A DNA stretch of 64,000 nt from Rhizophagus irregularis. Lineage: Eukaryota; Glomeromycota; Glomeromycetes; Glomerales; Glomeraceae. Made by a program: the position numbers and the translations under genes. This document shows positions 15,240 to 53,170 of this stretch, one piece after another (positions within the stretch are counted from its first letter, which is position 1; each line of letters starts with the position of its first letter). The stretch is taken from assembly GCF_026210795.1 (NCBI RefSeq), contig NC_089447.1, forward strand, positions 4,094,501-4,158,500, given 5' to 3'. The notes under the pieces are model-generated. The model was not told where the DNA came from, searched no databases, and saw only the letters and a program-made list of their open reading frames with translations.

Positions 15240-16134
15240 TGTAAATCTGAAGCAGAGGCCATTTTTTCTTTAATATTTCAGTTTAAGAATATTATTAACG
15301 TTCTTTATTTTTTTTTTGTAGGAGTAACTTCTTAGACCTTTCTTTACAAGCATTTGAAAGGTAAATCTGAGAGGGGGCTATTTTTTCTTTAATATTTTAT
15401 TTTAAGAACATTATTAAACGTTCTTTATTGTTTTTTTGTAGAAGTAACCTCTTGGATCTTTTTTCATAAGCGCTTGAAAGGTAAATCTGAGGCAGAGGCC
15501 ATTTTTTCTTTAATATTTCAGTTTAAAAATGTTATTAATGTTCTTTATTATTTTTTTTATAGAAGTAACTTCTTAGACCTTTTTTTATGAACGTTTGAAA
15601 GGTAAATCTGAAGGGAAGGCCATTTTTTCTTTAATATCTATCTATATATTAAAAAACTGCAATCACGTGGGCCGGTGGGCGTTATGTTTAGATTAACCAT
15701 ATAAATAAGTCATTTGAATTGTGTAACTCTACTCCTATTTGTCGCCAATGTTACACAAAGCCAAAAAAGGAAATTTTATTTCTGGCGAAAAGCTGAAATT
15801 TGGGTTACACAGAATTCCATAAAAGGAAATTGACAGTTACGCGAATTTCCGAAAAAGGAAATTTTATATTCTGTTACTTTTCAGAGAAAGTAAAAAATTG
15901 TGTTGCTCAAAATTTCCAAAAAAGGAAATTCTTTGCAGATCTTTTAATTCTGGCCGGAATTATGCCATTTTAATACATTATTAACCGTTGTTGTAGACAA
16001 CAGGTGAACACTAGTTTTATTTTAAGAACGTTATTAACATTTATTATTATTTTTTTTATAGAAGTAACCTCTTGGACCTTTCTTTACAAATGTTTGGAAG
16101 GTAAATCTGAAGCAAAGGTCATTTTTTCTTTAAT
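15240..16134 (+). repeat. Tandem array of about 120-bp exon/intron-like units
   Basis: Units start near 15240, 15360, 15480, 15600 and 16099. Each has an exon-like piece of about 40 nt (AAGTAACYTCTTGGACCTTT ... TTTGAAAG), then GTAAATCTGA, a T-rich stretch, a dyad of the AAGAACNTTATTAACGTTCTT kind, and a run ending TTTTTTTGTAG or TTTTTTATAG. The fourth unit is split by the Helitron and the fifth by mariner copy 1; a last partial unit follows at 17954-18010. No coding frame is kept between units. Confidence 0.75.
15637..16014 (+). mobile_element. Short non-autonomous Helitron
   Basis: It begins TCTATCTATATATTAAAAAA and ends CTAG, preceded about 12 nt upstream by a small hairpin (GTTGT TGTAG ACAAC). 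It sits between A and T with no target duplication. The neighbouring tandem unit supplies the empty site: TTAATA joined to TTTTATTTTAAGAAC. The body carries a perfect-ended E-box half (ATCACGTGGG) and four near-copies of TTTCCAAAAAAGGAAATT. There is no Rep/helicase gene. Confidence 0.88.
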
Positions 16135-28639: not shown

Positions 28640-29130
28640 ATACTATTGAAATTTACTTCAAAAATTAACTTTTTTTTAACCTTTTTTTTACTTTTTGTAA
28701 GGATTATTTTTGAATATAAATTTAAAAAAAAACTTTTTTTAAACATTTTACTTTCAAACTTTATTAAAAAAAAACATTTATTTAAAACTATTAAAAAAAT
28801 GGTTTTTGACATTTTTTTTAACAATTATTGTAGAAAATCAAGTCCAAAGTTGAATACTGAATCCCATAGATAAGTTTTGAAAATTTTTTTTTTGAAACTA
28901 TTAAAAAAGAAATTTTTTTATTTTATTGTAGAGAATCAAAATACTAAATCCTATAAGTAAGTTTCAAAAAAAAAATTTTGAAACTATTAAAAAATAGTAA
29001 TAAACATTTTTTTTTTTTATTTTATTATAGGAAATCGGAATACTGAATCCCATAGGTAAGTTTCAAAAAAAAATTTTTGAAATTATTAAAAAAATGTAAT
29101 AAACGTTTTTTTTTATTTTACAGTAGCTCA
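28640..29130 (+). repeat. Tandem array of exon/intron-like units, small
   Basis: Three to four units are seen. An exon-like piece (GAAATCGGAATACTGAATCC, ATAG) is followed by GTAAGTTTC, a stem-loop right behind the donor (AGTTTCAAAA / TTTTGAAACT), A/T-rich filler and TTTATTTTATTATAG. The exon-like parts are 25-40 nt and unrelated to those of the other arrays. The array points toward the LINE ORF1 fragment at 29680. Confidence 0.65.
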
Positions 29131-35875: not shown

Positions 35876-38433
35876 TTATTCAACTTCGTCCCACTCTTTT
35901 GCAAAAACTTTCATTGAACGGATATTCCTCTTTAAAAACAATATCTGACCCACTAAACTTGTGTCTAAACGATTTCTTTTTGCTGAAATTAGAGAACCAG
36001 CGTGAGAAAATAACCTTTCGCTTGACACAGAAGTAGCTGGAATCCCAAGGTATTTGCGGGCAATTTGTGATAACTTTGGGAAATTTTCTGCACGAACTTG
36101 CCACCAATCTAATGGATCTTCTGCTTTCAATGCAGCTGGCATTGCCAAATAACTATCAACTTCATCAATAGTTACAGTTGTTAACAGTTTTTTAGTCTTA
36201 CTTTTACGGCGCTGGCGTTATTCTTTTTGTGAACGCAACGAAGATTCTGCATCTGAAAAAGGTATGATTGGATTAGATGGCTCTGCTATAGGTGCTATTG
36301 GTGTTGTATTATTTGAGTTATTAGAATTCAACTCATTAAACTCATCACGAAGTTTTTGAATTATTTCAATTTTTTTATCTTCTAGTTCTAAACCTAACTC
36401 CTTATAACGCGGATCTAATAAAGTAGCCATTAATCCTGTATCATTGGGGGTATCCCAGTAATAAAGTAATGCATTGTAAACATTATTTTTTACTTTTTCC
36501 AAAATTCCTTCAGTCTTTAATTGATCTTTAATAGAGATTTTCTTTTTGGTAATGTTGCTTATAATCTCTTCATTATCGATTTCAACATCACCTTCTTCAA
36601 ATATTGTGTCTTCATTAAGATAATCAGCATCATTTGATGGCAGGTTTTCTGAGTCAGTAGCTAAATCAAAGGTGAATTCCTTAATAGTTAGCATCATTTT
36701 ACTAAGCGTTACATATGTACCTCCAGAAAAATATCGAGTAGCTCCCTCAAATGGAGATAAAAGATCAATTAATTTGTCTAACAATTCCCATTCTTTTTCG
36801 GATAACATGATTTTTTTTAGTTTAGTACCATCCTTTTTATCCTCTCTATTTGTACTAGTATATAAATCAGTCTGAAGTTGAATTATTGCATCTTTGAGAT
36901 AAAAAAGTCTATCCCAAGCATAGTATGAAGAGTTCCAACACATTTGTACATCTTGTATACAGCGCATTATATCCTCATATCCCAACTTACGCTGCACTTC
37001 TTCCAATCTTTCTATCTGCTTTTGTCTTGAAAAAAAATTGATTATACATTTTGTACGTGCAGCTAAAATTTCTACAGGTGCCAATCCTTTCCCAATTGCT
37101 AATTGAAGTATGTGTGCTAAGATTGCTTGCCGAAACCTAGGGGTTTAGGCAAGATGTCGTTTTGCCGAAAAGCGAAATTCTGCCAAAACTATATTAAAGT
37201 TATATTAAAAAACTGGCGAAACTTTGGAGAAAGGCGAAACTGCCGAAACTTATTATAAATGCCGAAACTGCTGAAACTCTGCCGAAACTATAATAAATCT
37301 ATAGTAAAATTTTGACGAAACTAATCGTAGGATTTTGAAGAGGTTTAGACAAGCAACCTTAGTGTGTGCAACACAGGGAAGTCTTTGAATAGTTTCACAT
37401 TGATCTTTTTGAGTTAAAATAGGAAATGCCGCCTTCATATTAGAACTGTTGTCAGTAATAATTGCTGTTACACGCCCATTAAGATCCCAACTTGAAATGC
37501 AATCATAAAGTAATTTAGCAACTAAATTTGCAGTATGAGGAGATGGTGCATACTTTATCTCTAACATTACATCTTTGACCTTAAAATTGGGCGTAATCCA
37601 TGCAGCCATAATACCAATATATCCATGCTTAGCCCTACTTGACCAAAGGTCTGTGGTAAGAGATACTACTGTTGCAGCAGTTTCGTTTAGAATATTCTTT
37701 AAATTTTCATAATTATGTTGATAACTTTTAACTATCATAGTTTTAATTTTTTGTTCTCCAGGTACTACAAATGAAGGATCAAAATGGGACATTTTTTCTT
37801 TATATGCTGGATTTGTAATAGCAGCAAGAGGTTGATCGGTAAGCAACATCCATTTAAGAACTGATTCTTCTCGTTGTTTTTGAATATGCTTAGGATGAGG
37901 TCGACGAGATTGAGCAAAATCTGTGATTTTTGTATTTCGTAGCTAAATTTAAATATAATTAAAACATTAATAAAAATCTTTAATAAATTTTTAATTGTAG
38001 CAAAAAATTTTACCTTTTTCAGAGCATTTTCATTATCCTCATCGATAATTTGATGAACATCTCGTAAATGTGCAACAAGATTTTCGGTTGAGCTTCCAGT
38101 ATTTTGATATACTTTACCACATCGATTACCATTTTATCTAAGATTATACAAGTACGAGTTTGTTCTCCTTTTATATTATATCCTATTTCAAAGTGATTTT
38201 TCGTAAACGATGATTTTTTTCTTTTATTTACATGATTTCTGCTTATAGAACTCAATAGGGAACTTGTTTCAGTTTCTTTTTTTTTAATAAAAATTTGAAT
38301 GATTATTAATTTTATTATTGAAAAAAATTTCTTAATTTAAGCTTATTTAGATACCTTTATCTTTTTCTGAAAGGTTTTGTTCGATTATATCAATATTAAA
38401 ATCATCACTTTGAATATAGTTAAAATCATCCAT
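35876..38433 (-). pseudogene. hAT transposase, recently disabled
   Basis: It starts at 38433 (MDDFNYIQSDDFN), with an intron at about 38281-38356 and another near 37945-38013. A BED-type zinc finger follows (Cys...RCGKVYQNTGSS...HLRDVH) but with a one-base shift near 38125. The main frame has TDLWSSRAKHGYIGIMAAW and TAIITDNSSNMKAAFP (catalytic Asp region), CVAHILQLA split by the 246-bp MITE, then LDPRYKELG, one in-frame stop near 36218, and the dimerisation region WWQVRAENFPKLSQIARKYL and SSERLFSHAGSLISAKRNRL, ending EWDEVE. Damage is small: one MITE, one stop, one shift. Confidence 0.88.
37117..37362 (+). mobile_element. 246-bp MITE, copy 2, inside the hAT transposase
   Basis: Same family and length as 14515-14760 and in the same orientation. 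TGTGTG flanks both sides (37111-37116 and 37363-37368). It splits the conserved CVAH...LQLA motif of the transposase. Left end CTAAGATTGCTTGCC has one mismatch to copy 1. Confidence 0.95.
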
Positions 38434-48929: not shown

Positions 48930-50211
48930 ATGAAGGCTGGTCGCCTAAAAAAAAGAGTAAAATGAAACGTTAGTAAAAAATGCTTCGTTAAATGAATTAA
49001 TTGAAAGTAATAACTAGTAAAAAATATTCCTCACTAAACTTCCGACTAGTCATCCAAATATCGAAGAACCGGCCATCTATAAATAGAAAAAAATGATACG
49101 TTAGAAACGTTTCATTAAGAAATTATTTATTCAAAAAAACTCTATTCGGTGTTCTGGACAAAAAAAAAATGAGAAAAATGAATGTTATCTAACGTTCATT
49201 ATAAAAAAAATTAAAATATTCGAAGTTTTACCTTCGAAATTCCATCTGGAAGAACCAAAAACTTACAAAAAACCAAATGAAACGTTATTAACGTTTCATG
49301 TTAAATAAAAACAATATTTTTGAAGTTACCTTCAAATGGAGTCTGGGACCCGTATCTTCCTTTACGTTCTGGACTTACAAAAAAATAAGAACGAACATTA
49401 GTTAACGTTTGTCAAATAAACACAAATAAACAAAAAAAAAACTTTTTTTCGAAGTTTCACCTTTGAAATACCGTCCGGGAAGTTGAAAACCTAAAATAAA
49501 AGAAAATCAAAACGTTAGTCAACGTTTCATTCAAATAAAATAACAAAAAAAAAATTGGAATTTCGAAAAGGTACCTTCGAAATTCCATCCAAATTATACA
49601 TGCTGCCCAAATTATTTTGGGATGCCATAATTATAATTTGGGATGCTATAATTCATTCGGTTTATATATAATTTACTATGTAAAGTGCTAAAATAATTTG
49701 GGATGCCATAATTGAATTTGGGATTTTACTTATAATTACGGCAGTCCAAAATAATTTGGGTGGCATGTATAATCCAGATATCCAAAAAACCTAAAAAAAA
49801 AAGAAAATCGAAACGTTAATCAATGTTTCGTTCAAATAAAAAAAAGAAAAAATGCAGAATTTTGAAGAGATACCTTTGAAATTCCATCCAGACATATGGA
49901 AATCGGAAAGTTGAAAATCTAAAATAAAAGAAAATCGAAATATTAGTCAACGTTTCGTTCAAATAAATAAACAAAAAAAAATCAGAATTTCAAAGAGGTA
50001 CCTTCGAAATTCCATCCAGATATCCGAAAAACCTAAAAAAAAAAGAAAATCGAAACATTAGTCAACATTTCGTTCAAATAAAAAAGAAAAAATGCATAAT
50101 TTCGAAAAGATACCTTCGAAATTCCATCCAGACATACGGAAACCAGAAAGCTGAAAACCTAAAATAAAAGAAAATCGAAATATTGTCAACATTTTGTTCA
50201 AATTAGTGCTC
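48930..50211 (-). repeat. Tandem array of exon/intron-like units, minus strand
   Basis: About eight units read on the minus strand: TTTTATTTTAG, an exon-like piece of 31-47 nt (for example GTTTTTCGGATATCTGG, ATGGAATTTCGAAG), a donor GTACC/GTATC/GTAAC, a stem-loop whose loop holds the donor (GGAATTTCGAA / TTCGAAATTCC), T-rich filler, a second dyad GAAACGTTGACTAACGTTTC, and the next acceptor. Exon-like lengths are not all multiples of three. One unit is split by the MITE at 49592-49773. Confidence 0.75.
49592..49773. mobile_element. 182-bp MITE in an array unit, 3-bp duplication
   Basis: Inverted ends ATTATACATGC(TG)CCCAAATT, flanked by CCA on both sides (49589-49591 and 49774-49776). Neighbouring units give the empty site. 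The same family is at 12652-12830. Confidence 0.82.
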
Positions 50212-50430
50212 TGAAAAAAATCTGATCTGATCTGGGATCCGCAGATTTGATCTGAGTCAGATCAGTTCAGTTTTCAAAATTTTGATCCATAGATCAGATC
50301 AGATTTAAAAAAAATCTGATCCGATCAGATTCAGATCGGATCAGATCAAACATGAGAAAATCTGATCTGATCTGAACAGATTTTGGATCAGATTTTTTTT
50401 TAAATTTTAAAAAAAATTCATTTTTTTAAA
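50212..50430. repeat. GATCTGATC-rich segment between two divergent arrays
   Basis: It begins TAGTGCTCTGAAAAAAATCT, which resembles the end of the hAT at 35449 (TAGTGATCTGATCC), and is packed with TCTGATC/GATCAGA words. It could be a solo hAT end or MITE. It lies exactly where the minus array stops and the plus array begins. Confidence 0.5.
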
Positions 50431-50439
50431 AACCCTTTC

Positions 50440-53170
50440 CTGGATGAACGGACGCTGGACGACCAAGATTTAAAAGAACGAACTAGGTAAGTTCATTTCT
50501 TTTTTTGTTATTTTTACTTAAGGGAACTTAATTAATGGTTCCCTTCTTTTTTATTAGAAAGCCTGGATGAACGAAGCCTAACGACCAGGATTTAAAAAAA
50601 AAGAACGAACCTATGGTAAGTTCGTTCTTTTTTTTAAGGTTTTTTTTATTTTTTATTTAAGAGAACGTAATTAACGTTCCCTTTCTTTTTTTTTAGGAAA
50701 CCTGGACGTGGACGAAGTCATTAACAACCAGGATTTAAAAAAAGAATGAACTATGGTAAGTTCATTTCTTTTTTTAAGTTTTTTTTTATTTTTACTTAAG
50801 GAAACGTAATTAACGTTTCCTTAGGAAACCTGGACGTGGACGAGGCCATTAATGACTAGGATTTAAAAAAAGAACGAACTATGGTAAGTTCATTTCTTTT
50901 TTTAAGTTTTTTTTTTTAATTTACTTAAGGGAACGTAATTAACGTTTCCTTTCTATTTTTTTTAGGAAACCTGAACGTGGACGAGACTATTAACGACCAG
51001 GATTTAAAAAAAGAACAAACTATAGTAAGTTCATTTCTTTTTTTAAGTTTTTTTTTATTTTTACTTAAGGGAACGTAATTAATGTTTCCTTTCTTTTTTT
51101 TTTAGGAAACCTGGACGAACGAAGTCGTTAAGACGTTAACGACCAGGATTTAAAAAAAAGAACGAACTATGGTAAGTTCGTTTCTTTTTTTAAGTTTTTT
51201 TTTAATTTACTTAAGGGAACGTAATTAACGTTCCCTTTCTTTTTTTTAGAAAACCTGGACGTGGACGAGGCCATTAACAACTAGGATTTAAAAAAAGAAC
51301 GAACTATGGTAAATTCGTTTCTTTTTTTAAGTTTTTTTTTTATTTTTACTCAAGGGAACGTAATTAATGTTCCCTTTCTTTTTTTTTTAGGAAACCTGGA
51401 CGAACGAAGTCGTTAAGACGTTAATGACCAGGATTTAAAAAAAGAACGAACTATGGTAAGTTCGTTTCTTTTTTTAAGTTTTTTTTTTATTTTACTTAAG
51501 GGAACGTAATTAACGTTCCCTTTCTTTTTTTTTAGGAAACCTGGACGTGGACGAAGTCGTTAATAACCAGGATTTAAAAAAAAATGAACTATGGTAAGTT
51601 TTTTTCTTTTTTTAAGTTTTTTTTTTAATTTACTTAAGGGAACGTAATTAATGTTCCCTTTCTTTTTTTTTTAGGAAACCTGGACGCGAGATGAAGCTGA
51701 ACGACCAGGATTTAAAAGAACGAACTATGGTAAGTTTGTTTTTTTATTTTTATTTTTATTTTTTTACTTTAAGGGCGTTCGCCTCGAAACTTTTTTTAAA
51801 TTTTTTTTTTTTTAATTTCTATTAGGAAACGTTACTAATGTTTCCTATAATATTTTTGTAGAACCTTCGGCATATTCGATTTTGGGAAAACGAAATGGTA
51901 AGTTTCGAAGCGTTCGCTTCGAAACTTTTAATATTTTTTTTTTTATTTTTTAGGAACCGTTTCTAACGCTTCCTATACTTCTTTTTAGGACTTTCGGCGT
52001 ATTTGACTGTGGAAAAGAAAGGGTAAGTTTCGAGGCGTTTACCTTGAAACATCTTTAAAGAAATTTATTTTTTAATTTCTTTTTAGGAAACATTACTAAC
52101 GTTTCCTATATTTTTCTTTTGTAGGATCTTTTGGCGCGCTTGACTTGGAATTCGGAAACTTTTTTAAATTATTTTTTTTTTTCATTTCTATTAGGAAACG
52201 TTACTAATGTTTCCATAATTTTTTTTTTTGTAGTACTTTCGACATATTCGATTTTGGAGGAAACGGAATGGTAAGTTTCGAGCTGTTCGTCTCGAAACTT
52301 TTTTTAAAAAATTTTTTATTAGGAAACGTTCTAACTGAACGTCTCCTTTATTTTTTGTAGGTTCAAGAATATCTGGTATTGGATACGGGTCCTGTAACGG
52401 TAAGTTTCGTATGTTTCGTTATGAAACTTCCGTTGTTTTTTTGTTTTTTTTTTATAAATTAGGAAATATTTATTAACATTTCCTTTTTCTTTTTCTTTTA
52501 TTTAGGTATACAATAGAATCCATTCCAAATTCCAATTTTGAAACCAGGATCCTAGAAATTGTTGGAAACCGGCGAAATAATTGGATCGATCAATCAATGA
52601 GTGTGTTCAATAATACATCAATTGCATGAAGGGAAATTGTAAAAATGCAAAGAAGCGATTTGTATAGTATTGTTACATGAGATCGATTGATAATAGTTAA
52701 GCAAAGAAGCTTTAGCGCTGTCGGTGATACTGGTAAAGTACGGGAATCCTGGCAACGATCGATACATCAGAATCCCAGGCCAGTTTTTGAAACGTATCAT
52801 TAATTAGAAATGGTGAACTAATGTATCTCTTGTTTTTTTTTGTAGGTTTCAGATCGGGAATATGCTGGAAACGCTTATAATGTGAGTTTCACAATGTATT
52901 GTGAAATAATCACTTTTTCATTTTAATTAGAAACGTTAGCTAACGTTTCTATTTTACTTTCTTTTGTAGGTTTCGAATCCGGAATGCGTTGGGAATTCTT
53001 GAACTATAAGTTTCGCAACATTCAGTTGCGAAACGAATTATTTTATTATTTTTTTTTAATTAGTTCCACCTTCAATTGAATGGTAAGTTTCGAATTTTGA
53101 AACGAAACTTATTTTATTTTATTATTATTATTATTAATGTTTTTTTTTCTTTTTTTTTATAGGGTTTCAA
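50440..53170 (+). repeat. Tandem array of exon/intron-like units, plus strand
   Basis: About 16 GTAAGT-type donors are spaced 120-140 bp apart up to about 51730, then more irregularly. A typical unit: exon-like GAAACCTGGACGTGGACGAA, GTCGTTAACGACCAGG, ATTTAAAAAAAGAACGAAC, TATG; donor GTAAGTTCG; T-rich filler; dyad AAGGGAACGTAATTAACGTT, CCCTT; TTTCTTTTTTTTTAG. The end of the exon-like piece and the start of the intron-like piece form a stem (AAAGAACGAAC / GTTCGTTCTTT) with the donor in the loop. From 51760 the exon-like pieces change (CCTTCGGCATATTCGATTTT) but the layout persists. Common lengths are 58, 59 and 66 nt, so no frame is kept. Confidence 0.8.

What the first reader, a model, noticed from the sequence alone, without database searches (positions are those of the whole stretch)
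50440..53170. Tandem array of miniature exon/intron-like units with the 5' splice site in a hairpin loop
About 16 units carry a textbook GTAAGT donor and a polypyrimidine-AG acceptor in register. The flanks of the donor pair with each other (AAAGAACGAAC with GTTCGTTCTTT), placing the donor in the loop, and a second dyad (AAGGGAACGT / ACGTTCCCTT) stands before the acceptor. A minisatellite made of introns is unexpected. It could be an introner-like element amplified in tandem, a long untranslated leader with many tiny exons, or a repeat that only mimics splice sites. Exon-like pieces of 58, 59 and 66 nt break any frame, so a protein is unlikely.
Basis: partly seen in the sequence, partly recalled or inferred. 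Interest (0 to 1): 0.88.

Follow-up and report, generated by a model that had tools for sequence, protein, structure and literature searches.

The report
Transposon filled with hairpin-intron arrays
A jumping DNA element, in a genome that fits a root-dwelling soil fungus, is built from rows of tiny exon-and-intron-like units whose splice signals sit in small hairpins, and an unrelated jumping element in the same genome carries rows of the same design; whether the units are really spliced is not yet shown.

Summary
50204-51773 is a 3'-truncated nonautonomous hAT-type DNA transposon (TIR TAGTGCTCYGAAAA; exact 8-bp target duplication in 14 of 16 relatives with both ends, of 22 copies examined). 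Its interior is ten donor-bearing units of about 140 bp. 51774-53162 is a second, different exon/intron-like array fused to it at a hairpin. One hAT unit has 300 reported matches in the genome. Arrays of the same design but other sequence fill a 4.2-kb CACTA-like noncoding transposon (3-bp duplications in 4 of 4 copies with both ends) and other loci.

Across divergent arrays donor and branch site each lie in a hairpin: one donor-hairpin pattern has 688 matches against 0 control; its inner arms covary (90% paired, 51% when swapped). Array introns are more structured than 21 ordinary introns (branch z below -2: 67 of 91 against 0 of 21). Exons keep no frame.

Against: young hAT copies show CpG decay without compensation, and no spliced junction was found in the genome. 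Splicing is inferred, not shown. Searches returned no description.

The parts
50204..50217 (+). 5' terminal inverted repeat of the hAT-type element, TAGTGCTCTGAAAA
   Evidence: genome-wide pattern 52 sites against 2 control
50218..50486 (+). 5' subterminal region rich in GATC/GATCTG repeats, then the first exon-like piece up to the first donor
   Evidence: all 40 scored candidates match this 290-bp end region
50487..51729 (+). Nine introns and nine following exon-like pieces of the hAT-type array (intron/exon units of about 140 bp; exons 55-66 nt; introns 69-82 nt)
51161..51182 (+). Example of the donor hairpin of a hAT-type unit: AACGAACTATGGTAAGTTCGTT, donor (51172) in the loop, one arm in the exon
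   Evidence: fold
51213..51237 (+). Example of the branch hairpin of the same unit: AAGGGAACGTAATTAACGTTCCCTT
   Evidence: fold
51730..51861 (+). Chimeric intron: donor of the last hAT-type unit joined at about 51773 to the 3' half of a donor hairpin, branch hairpin and acceptor of the second array; the 3' end of the hAT-type element is lost here
   Evidence: searches compared with the complete 3' ends; no 3' TIR found
51862..53162 (+). Second, divergent micro-exon array with intron-internal donor hairpins (GTAAGTTTCG..CGAAACTT type) and branch hairpins (GAAACGTTACTAATGTTTC type); six donors
49797..50165 (-). Tandem repeat, period 112, which read on the - strand looks like another micro-exon array (exon end GGAATTTCGAAG, donor GTATC in a loop closed by CTTCGAA)
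   Evidence: for the repeat; - strand reading by eye

Best explanation
The feature is the noncoding interior of a nonautonomous hAT-superfamily DNA transposon (shown by TIRs and 8-bp target duplications). The interior is a tandem array of exon/intron modules that belongs to a wider class of micro-exon arrays in this genome (shown: a CACTA-like transposon and other loci carry arrays of the same design with different sequence). In that class most introns present the donor and the branch site in hairpins (shown, with covariation across divergent arrays). Inferred: transcripts crossing an array are spliced by the ordinary spliceosome, many times, into a noncoding RNA, and the hairpins keep 10-20 similar neighbouring introns from mispairing and exon skipping by folding each intron locally and hiding its signals until they are used. 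Inferred and weaker: being intron-dense raises the expression of the element's transcripts or helps them escape silencing. The copy in the window is truncated and probably dead.
For: Transposon: hAT-type; CACTA-like. Order donor, hairpin, branch hairpin, T-rich tract, YAG kept in arrays of unrelated sequence. Two-hairpin introns all on one strand of each array: 7, 5, 7 and 6 in L005-L008 and 0 on the other strand, 0 in 10 shuffles each. Donor-hairpin covariation: 45 long-loop strings of 68 distinct listed, 90% of three inner pairs Watson-Crick against 51% with arms swapped, 0 of 20000; first inner pair formed in 45 of 45 with three pair types (first version on 41 strings). Branch-hairpin covariation: 0 of 2000, and 0 of 5000 without the commonest arm. 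Structure against ordinary introns: donor z below -2 in 62 of 91 against 3 of 21, branch 67 of 91 against 0 of 21. Noncoding exons.
Against: No transcript data. No spliced exon-exon junction in the genome for either family (7 near-matches, control 13; 0). Within the hAT family, 148 units in 22 copies differ mainly at CpG sites and the two hairpin arms do not change together (P = 0.62; branch P = 0.26). hAT exons are themselves structured (15 of 18) so hairpins there are not limited to splice signals. The exon:intron donor dyad covaries only weakly across arrays (7 of 1000 shuffles reach it). The window arrays W15 and W28 and L002b are weak in structure.
Confidence: 0.58

Rival explanations
1. 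A palindromic minisatellite inside transposons that only mimics introns. Hairpins arise and stay perfect at the DNA level (quasi-palindrome correction, cruciforms or protein-binding dyads) and nothing is spliced.
For: hAT exons fold too (15 of 18); young copies show no compensatory change; no spliced junctions; two junctions (window 51773 and the 3' end of the captured piece in L037) fall in a donor hairpin arm, as breaks at palindromes would.
Against: Hairpins sit on donor and branch site in unrelated arrays, while exons of the L005-L008 arrays are not structured (3 of 39). Donor consensus, branch motif, T-rich tract and YAG keep order and strand.
Confidence: 0.27
2. Introner-like elements: the introns themselves are mobile or seed new introns in genes, and the arrays are their nurseries.
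For: Fungal introner-like elements are reported to have inverted repeats or stable secondary structure (PMC8469720, passages); the introns here do too.
Against: 16 of 16 isolated-looking hits lie in arrays, by eye. What moves, by TIR and duplication, is the whole element.
Confidence: 0.08
3. A protein-coding gene family with repeat exons (for example a repeat effector), or the long leader of an ordinary host gene.
For: Tandem repeat exons with canonical splice signals; TATA-like box and pyrimidine-rich leader upstream of the CACTA-like arrays (by eye).
Against: Exon lengths modulo 3 are 25/24/32 (P = 0.49); the longest spliced open frame is not beyond shuffles at 5% in any of 9 arrays, lowest L005 at 24 of 300. 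Arrays are dispersed with TIRs and target duplications.
Confidence: 0.05

Closest known systems
Nonautonomous hAT-superfamily elements (MITE-like)
   Same: TIR TAGTGCTCYGAAAA, 8-bp target duplication, no transposase seen, dispersed copies; five sister elements with the same ends
   Different: The interior is a tandem array of exon/intron-like units with hairpins on donor and branch site
CACTA/CMC (EnSpm) nonautonomous elements
   Same: TIR beginning CACAG, 3-bp target duplication in 4 of 4 copies with both ends
   Different: TIR does not begin CACTA; no transposase frame in the two copies read; interior again a micro-exon array
Fungal introner-like elements (PMC8469720, passages; PMC9860276, listing only)
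   Same: Many similar introns in one genome with inverted repeats or stable folds
   Different: Those are single introns placed in many genes; here introns stay in tandem arrays inside transposons, with two separate short hairpins each
Internally symmetrical stwintrons of Hypoxylaceae (PMC8469720, passages)
   Same: Proliferated intron sequences with inverted repeats
   Different: Stwintrons are nested introns with one terminal inverted repeat of 45-55 nt and no flanking duplications; here not nested
Splice-site-sequestering hairpins in regulated introns (general knowledge; listing)
   Same: A hairpin over or around a donor
   Different: Here repeated in many consecutive introns, with a second hairpin on the branch site

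Membership tests
hAT superfamily (nonautonomous member) | 8-bp target site duplication | tested here: met
   Exact in 14 of 16 copies with both ends, 7/8 and 6/8 in the other two; 6 of 22 copies lack a usable end; L056 exact too
hAT superfamily (nonautonomous member) | Short terminal inverted repeats of hAT type | tested here: met
   TAGTGCTCYGAAAA and GAGCACTA-like ends; that hAT TIRs often begin YAGNG is recalled
hAT superfamily (nonautonomous member) | Mobilised by a hAT transposase | not tested
   No autonomous partner with these ends was found; window 36218-37849 has weak hAT-like matches under the Pfam cut-offs and its ends were not compared
CACTA/CMC superfamily (second element) | 2-4-bp (here 3-bp) target duplication | tested here: met
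   ATC, CTT, TTA, TAA: 4 of 4 copies with both ends, of 5 looked at
CACTA/CMC superfamily (second element) | TIR beginning CACTA | tested here: not met
   CACAGGTCGAA; therefore called CACTA-like only
Introner-like elements | Near-identical introns inserted singly in many coding genes | tested here: not met
   16 of 16 opened hits are in arrays by eye; a sample from the first 100 of 688 matches, not a census
Introner-like elements | Stable intron secondary structure or inverted repeats | tested here: met
Spliceosomal introns | Removed from transcripts | not testable with these tools
   No RNA data; signals present
Stwintrons | One intron nested inside a splice element of another | not tested
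   No nested arrangement was seen in the segmentation, but it was not searched for
Repeat-protein gene | Frame-preserving exons and a long spliced open frame | tested here: not met

The most novel reading that the evidence does not exclude
This genome holds a class of RNA-structured noncoding micro-exon arrays that unrelated DNA transposon families have taken up as their interior. Each of many consecutive introns is marked by one hairpin on the donor and one on the branch site, and the repeated splicing of such transcripts serves the transposon (expression, export or escape from RNA silencing): a splicing-based transposon device for which I know no counterpart.
Probability: 0.38. Interest if true: 0.92.

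Novelty: new variant of a known kind. Interest (0 to 1): 0.76.

Why it matters
If spliced, these arrays are a natural experiment in how RNA hairpins can define 10-20 consecutive similar introns with exons mostly under 70 nt, where plain exon or intron definition should struggle, and they show transposons carrying introns as working cargo rather than creating them. About two thirds of transposable elements of Rhizophagus irregularis are reported as unclassified (PMC11075540, abstract and passages), and the genome fits that species; the ends given here would classify two families. If not spliced, they are a strong case of palindromic DNA evolving to look like introns, and a trap for gene prediction.

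Tried and rejected
Rfam scan of the window: no family at gathering score. Protein-repeat idea (SP7-like repeat effectors, looked at in the literature only): rejected on frame. Within-family covariation of the hAT hairpins: tested, none. Spliced retrocopies: none. Introner test on 16 isolated-looking hits: all in arrays by eye. Autonomous partner through extra TIR sites (7 of the 52 sites opened): one array-bearing element (L056), five short elements without the array (L058-L062) and one locus that looks unrelated (L057). A first, too narrow two-hairpin scan found 3 hits because it could not see exon-side arms; it was widened before the counts.

Weak points of the controls. The 21 ordinary introns were picked by open-frame and signal rules, not by transcripts, and a few may be wrong. 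The 91 array introns came from an automatic segmentation that misplaces some exons. The swaps do not model relatedness between arrays; one search includes L007 and the C16 copy, which are 94% alike. Some matches are self-complementary and are counted on both strands. Counts are capped. Only two CACTA-like copies were checked for open frames, and L005, L006 and L008 were not read to their ends; L005 and L008 share the 5' region of that family, L006 only array similarity.

Full report
WHERE IT IS. The window is G000:C19:4094501-4158500 of an assembly of 146.7 Mb in 32 contigs; GC is 22-38% in 2-kb steps. Size and contig number fit Rhizophagus irregularis, for which a paper draws chromosomes 1-32 (PMC11333574, passages).

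THE OBSERVATION. There are 16 donors between 50487 and 53083, followed by branch-like motifs, T-rich tracts and TAG. The first ten belong to units of about 140 bp. A strict search for introns with both a donor hairpin and a branch hairpin finds 7 in the window, all on the + strand within 50616-52969, none in 12 block-shuffled windows and none in five 10-kb stretches from other contigs.

WHAT CARRIES IT. One unit has 300 reported matches in the genome (a lower bound); the listed rows lie on 20 of 32 contigs. L002-L004 share ends outside the array (by eye). Of 22 copies examined (window, L002-L004, L009-L026), 16 have both ends, TAGTGCTCYGAAAA-like and GAGCACTA-like, with an exact 8-bp duplication in 14, 7/8 in L023 and 6/8 in L014. 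The other six lack an end or pair wrongly (window, L003, L004, L013, L025, L026). L056 is a further exact case. Lengths of the 16 are 1.1-2.7 kb. This is a nonautonomous element of hAT type. Five other elements with the same TIR, 670-773 bp long, lack the array and have 8/8 (four) or 7/8 (one) duplications (L058-L062). So the array is cargo between hAT-type ends. The window copy starts at 50204 and has lost its 3' end.

A SECOND TRANSPOSON WITH THE SAME DESIGN. The pattern GTAAGTTTCG..CGAAACTT, a stem that contains the donor, has 336 + 352 matches against 0 for the reversed control. Opening four clusters showed arrays of micro-exons, mostly 24-45 nt, with introns of about 80-106 nt. Copies on C2 and C16 align over about 4.2 kb at 94% and end at CACAGGTCGAA..TTCGACCTGTG. 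Target duplications are 3 bp in 4 of 4 copies with both ends: ATC, CTT (by eye), TTA, TAA; in a fifth copy, L068, no 3' end was found. The promoter-side region, with a TATA-like box and a pyrimidine-rich leader downstream (by eye), matched in all 40 scored of 143 candidates. The C2 and C16 copies have no stop-to-stop frame over 122 aa. I call it CACTA-like; its TIR does not begin CACTA. Its ends differ from those of the hAT-type element.

STRUCTURE. (1) Donor. In the L005-L008 arrays the first 36 nt of the intron fold strongly on their own (z below -2 in 30 of 39); in hAT-type units they do not (1 of 18), because there the exon supplies one arm. The donor-in-loop form TTCGAAGGTA..CTTCGAA also exists genome-wide, 312 matches against 4. 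(2) Branch. GAAACGTTANTAACGTTTC has 52 sites against 0, and variants keep pairing. (3) Against 21 ordinary introns, 91 array introns have donor z below -2 in 62 against 3, and branch z below -2 in 67 against 0; W15, W28 and L002b are weak. (4) Covariation. Of 68 distinct donor strings listed, the 45 with loops of 10 nt or more have 90% Watson-Crick in three inner pairs that the pattern did not fix, against 51% when arms are swapped, 0 of 20000; the first inner pair forms in 45 of 45 with A-T, C-G and T-A. Branch arms over 107 combinations: 0 of 2000, and 0 of 5000 without the commonest arm. The exon:intron dyad across arrays is weak, 7 of 1000.

RESULTS AGAINST. Inside the hAT family 148 units of 22 copies differ mainly at CpG sites, and the two arms do not change together (P = 0.62; branch P = 0.26). 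hAT exons are themselves structured (15 of 18), so hairpins there are not limited to splice signals. No spliced junction is found in the genome for either family (7 near-matches, control 13; 0). There are no RNA data.

NOT A PROTEIN, NOT CLASSICAL INTRONERS. Exon lengths modulo 3 are 25/24/32 (P = 0.49), and in 9 arrays the longest spliced open frame is never beyond the shuffles at 5% (lowest L005, 24 of 300). Sixteen donor-hairpin hits that looked isolated in the first 100 listed rows all lie in decayed arrays by eye. In one, L037, the array encloses a piece of a mitochondrial carrier gene (PF00153, E 4.4e-12).

NEIGHBOURHOOD. The window element lies between what reads as a minus-strand array (49797-50165) and a plus-strand array (51774-53162). 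L002 and L056 also have another array beside the element. The fusion at 51773 and the 3' end of the captured piece in L037 both fall in the 5' arm of a donor hairpin (by eye).

HOW IT MAY WORK. Shown: transposons; tandem exon/intron-like modules; donor and branch hairpins that covary across divergent arrays; no sign of coding. Inferred: spliced noncoding transcripts in which hairpins keep neighbouring similar introns apart. Inferred and weaker: an advantage to the element through expression or escape from silencing. In Cryptococcus, inefficiently spliced transposon transcripts feed RNAi (PMC5851062, passages), and one paper reports that intron number and position modulate expression cumulatively (PMC3744415, start of abstract in the listing). 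R. irregularis is said to harbour 40 AGO copies (PMC11075540, passage).

IN PRINT. Searches of one open library returned no description of such arrays; I saw listings and abstract starts, and passages of four papers (PMC11333574, PMC8469720, PMC11075540, PMC5851062). Closest are introner-like elements and symmetrical stwintrons (PMC8469720, passages), which are single or nested introns in genes.

Noticed in passing
window 15241-15637 (+): Tandem repeat of about 121 bp with GTAAAT donors, TTAAC-like branch motifs and TAG acceptors (39-nt exon-like pieces); little predicted structure (0 of 4 introns below z -2 at either site).
   Followed up: partly
window 28830-29125 (+): Another small exon/intron-like array with GTAAGTTTC..GAAACT donor dyads (donor z below -2 in 2 of 3).
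   Followed up: partly
window 23681-23624 (-) and 56366-56288 (-): Intron-like stretches with a donor dyad (GTAAGTTA..TAACTTAC; and exon CAAGATTC with intron GAATCTTG), listed by the open-frame scan; their context was not examined.
   Followed up: no
L037:1268-1741: A mitochondrial-carrier gene piece (PF00153) with its own plain intron sits inside a micro-exon array, as if an exon or gene fragment had been captured.
   Followed up: partly
window 51773 and L037 about 1748: Two independent junctions fall in the 5' arm of a donor hairpin, which may mean that these hairpins are breakage points.
   Followed up: no
window 36218-37849 (-): Open frames with weak hAT-like matches (PF14372 19.7 bits, cut-off 27; PF04937 DUF659 32.3 bits, cut-off 34.7); not checked for ends matching TAGTGCTC.
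   Followed up: partly
L058, L059, L060, L061, L062: Elements of 670-773 bp with the same TIR and 8-bp (one 7/8) duplications as the array-bearing family but without the array.
   Followed up: partly
L002-L004, L009-L026 and the CACTA-like copies: Differences between young copies are mainly C to T and G to A at CpG sites, as cytosine methylation or a related process would leave.
   Followed up: partly
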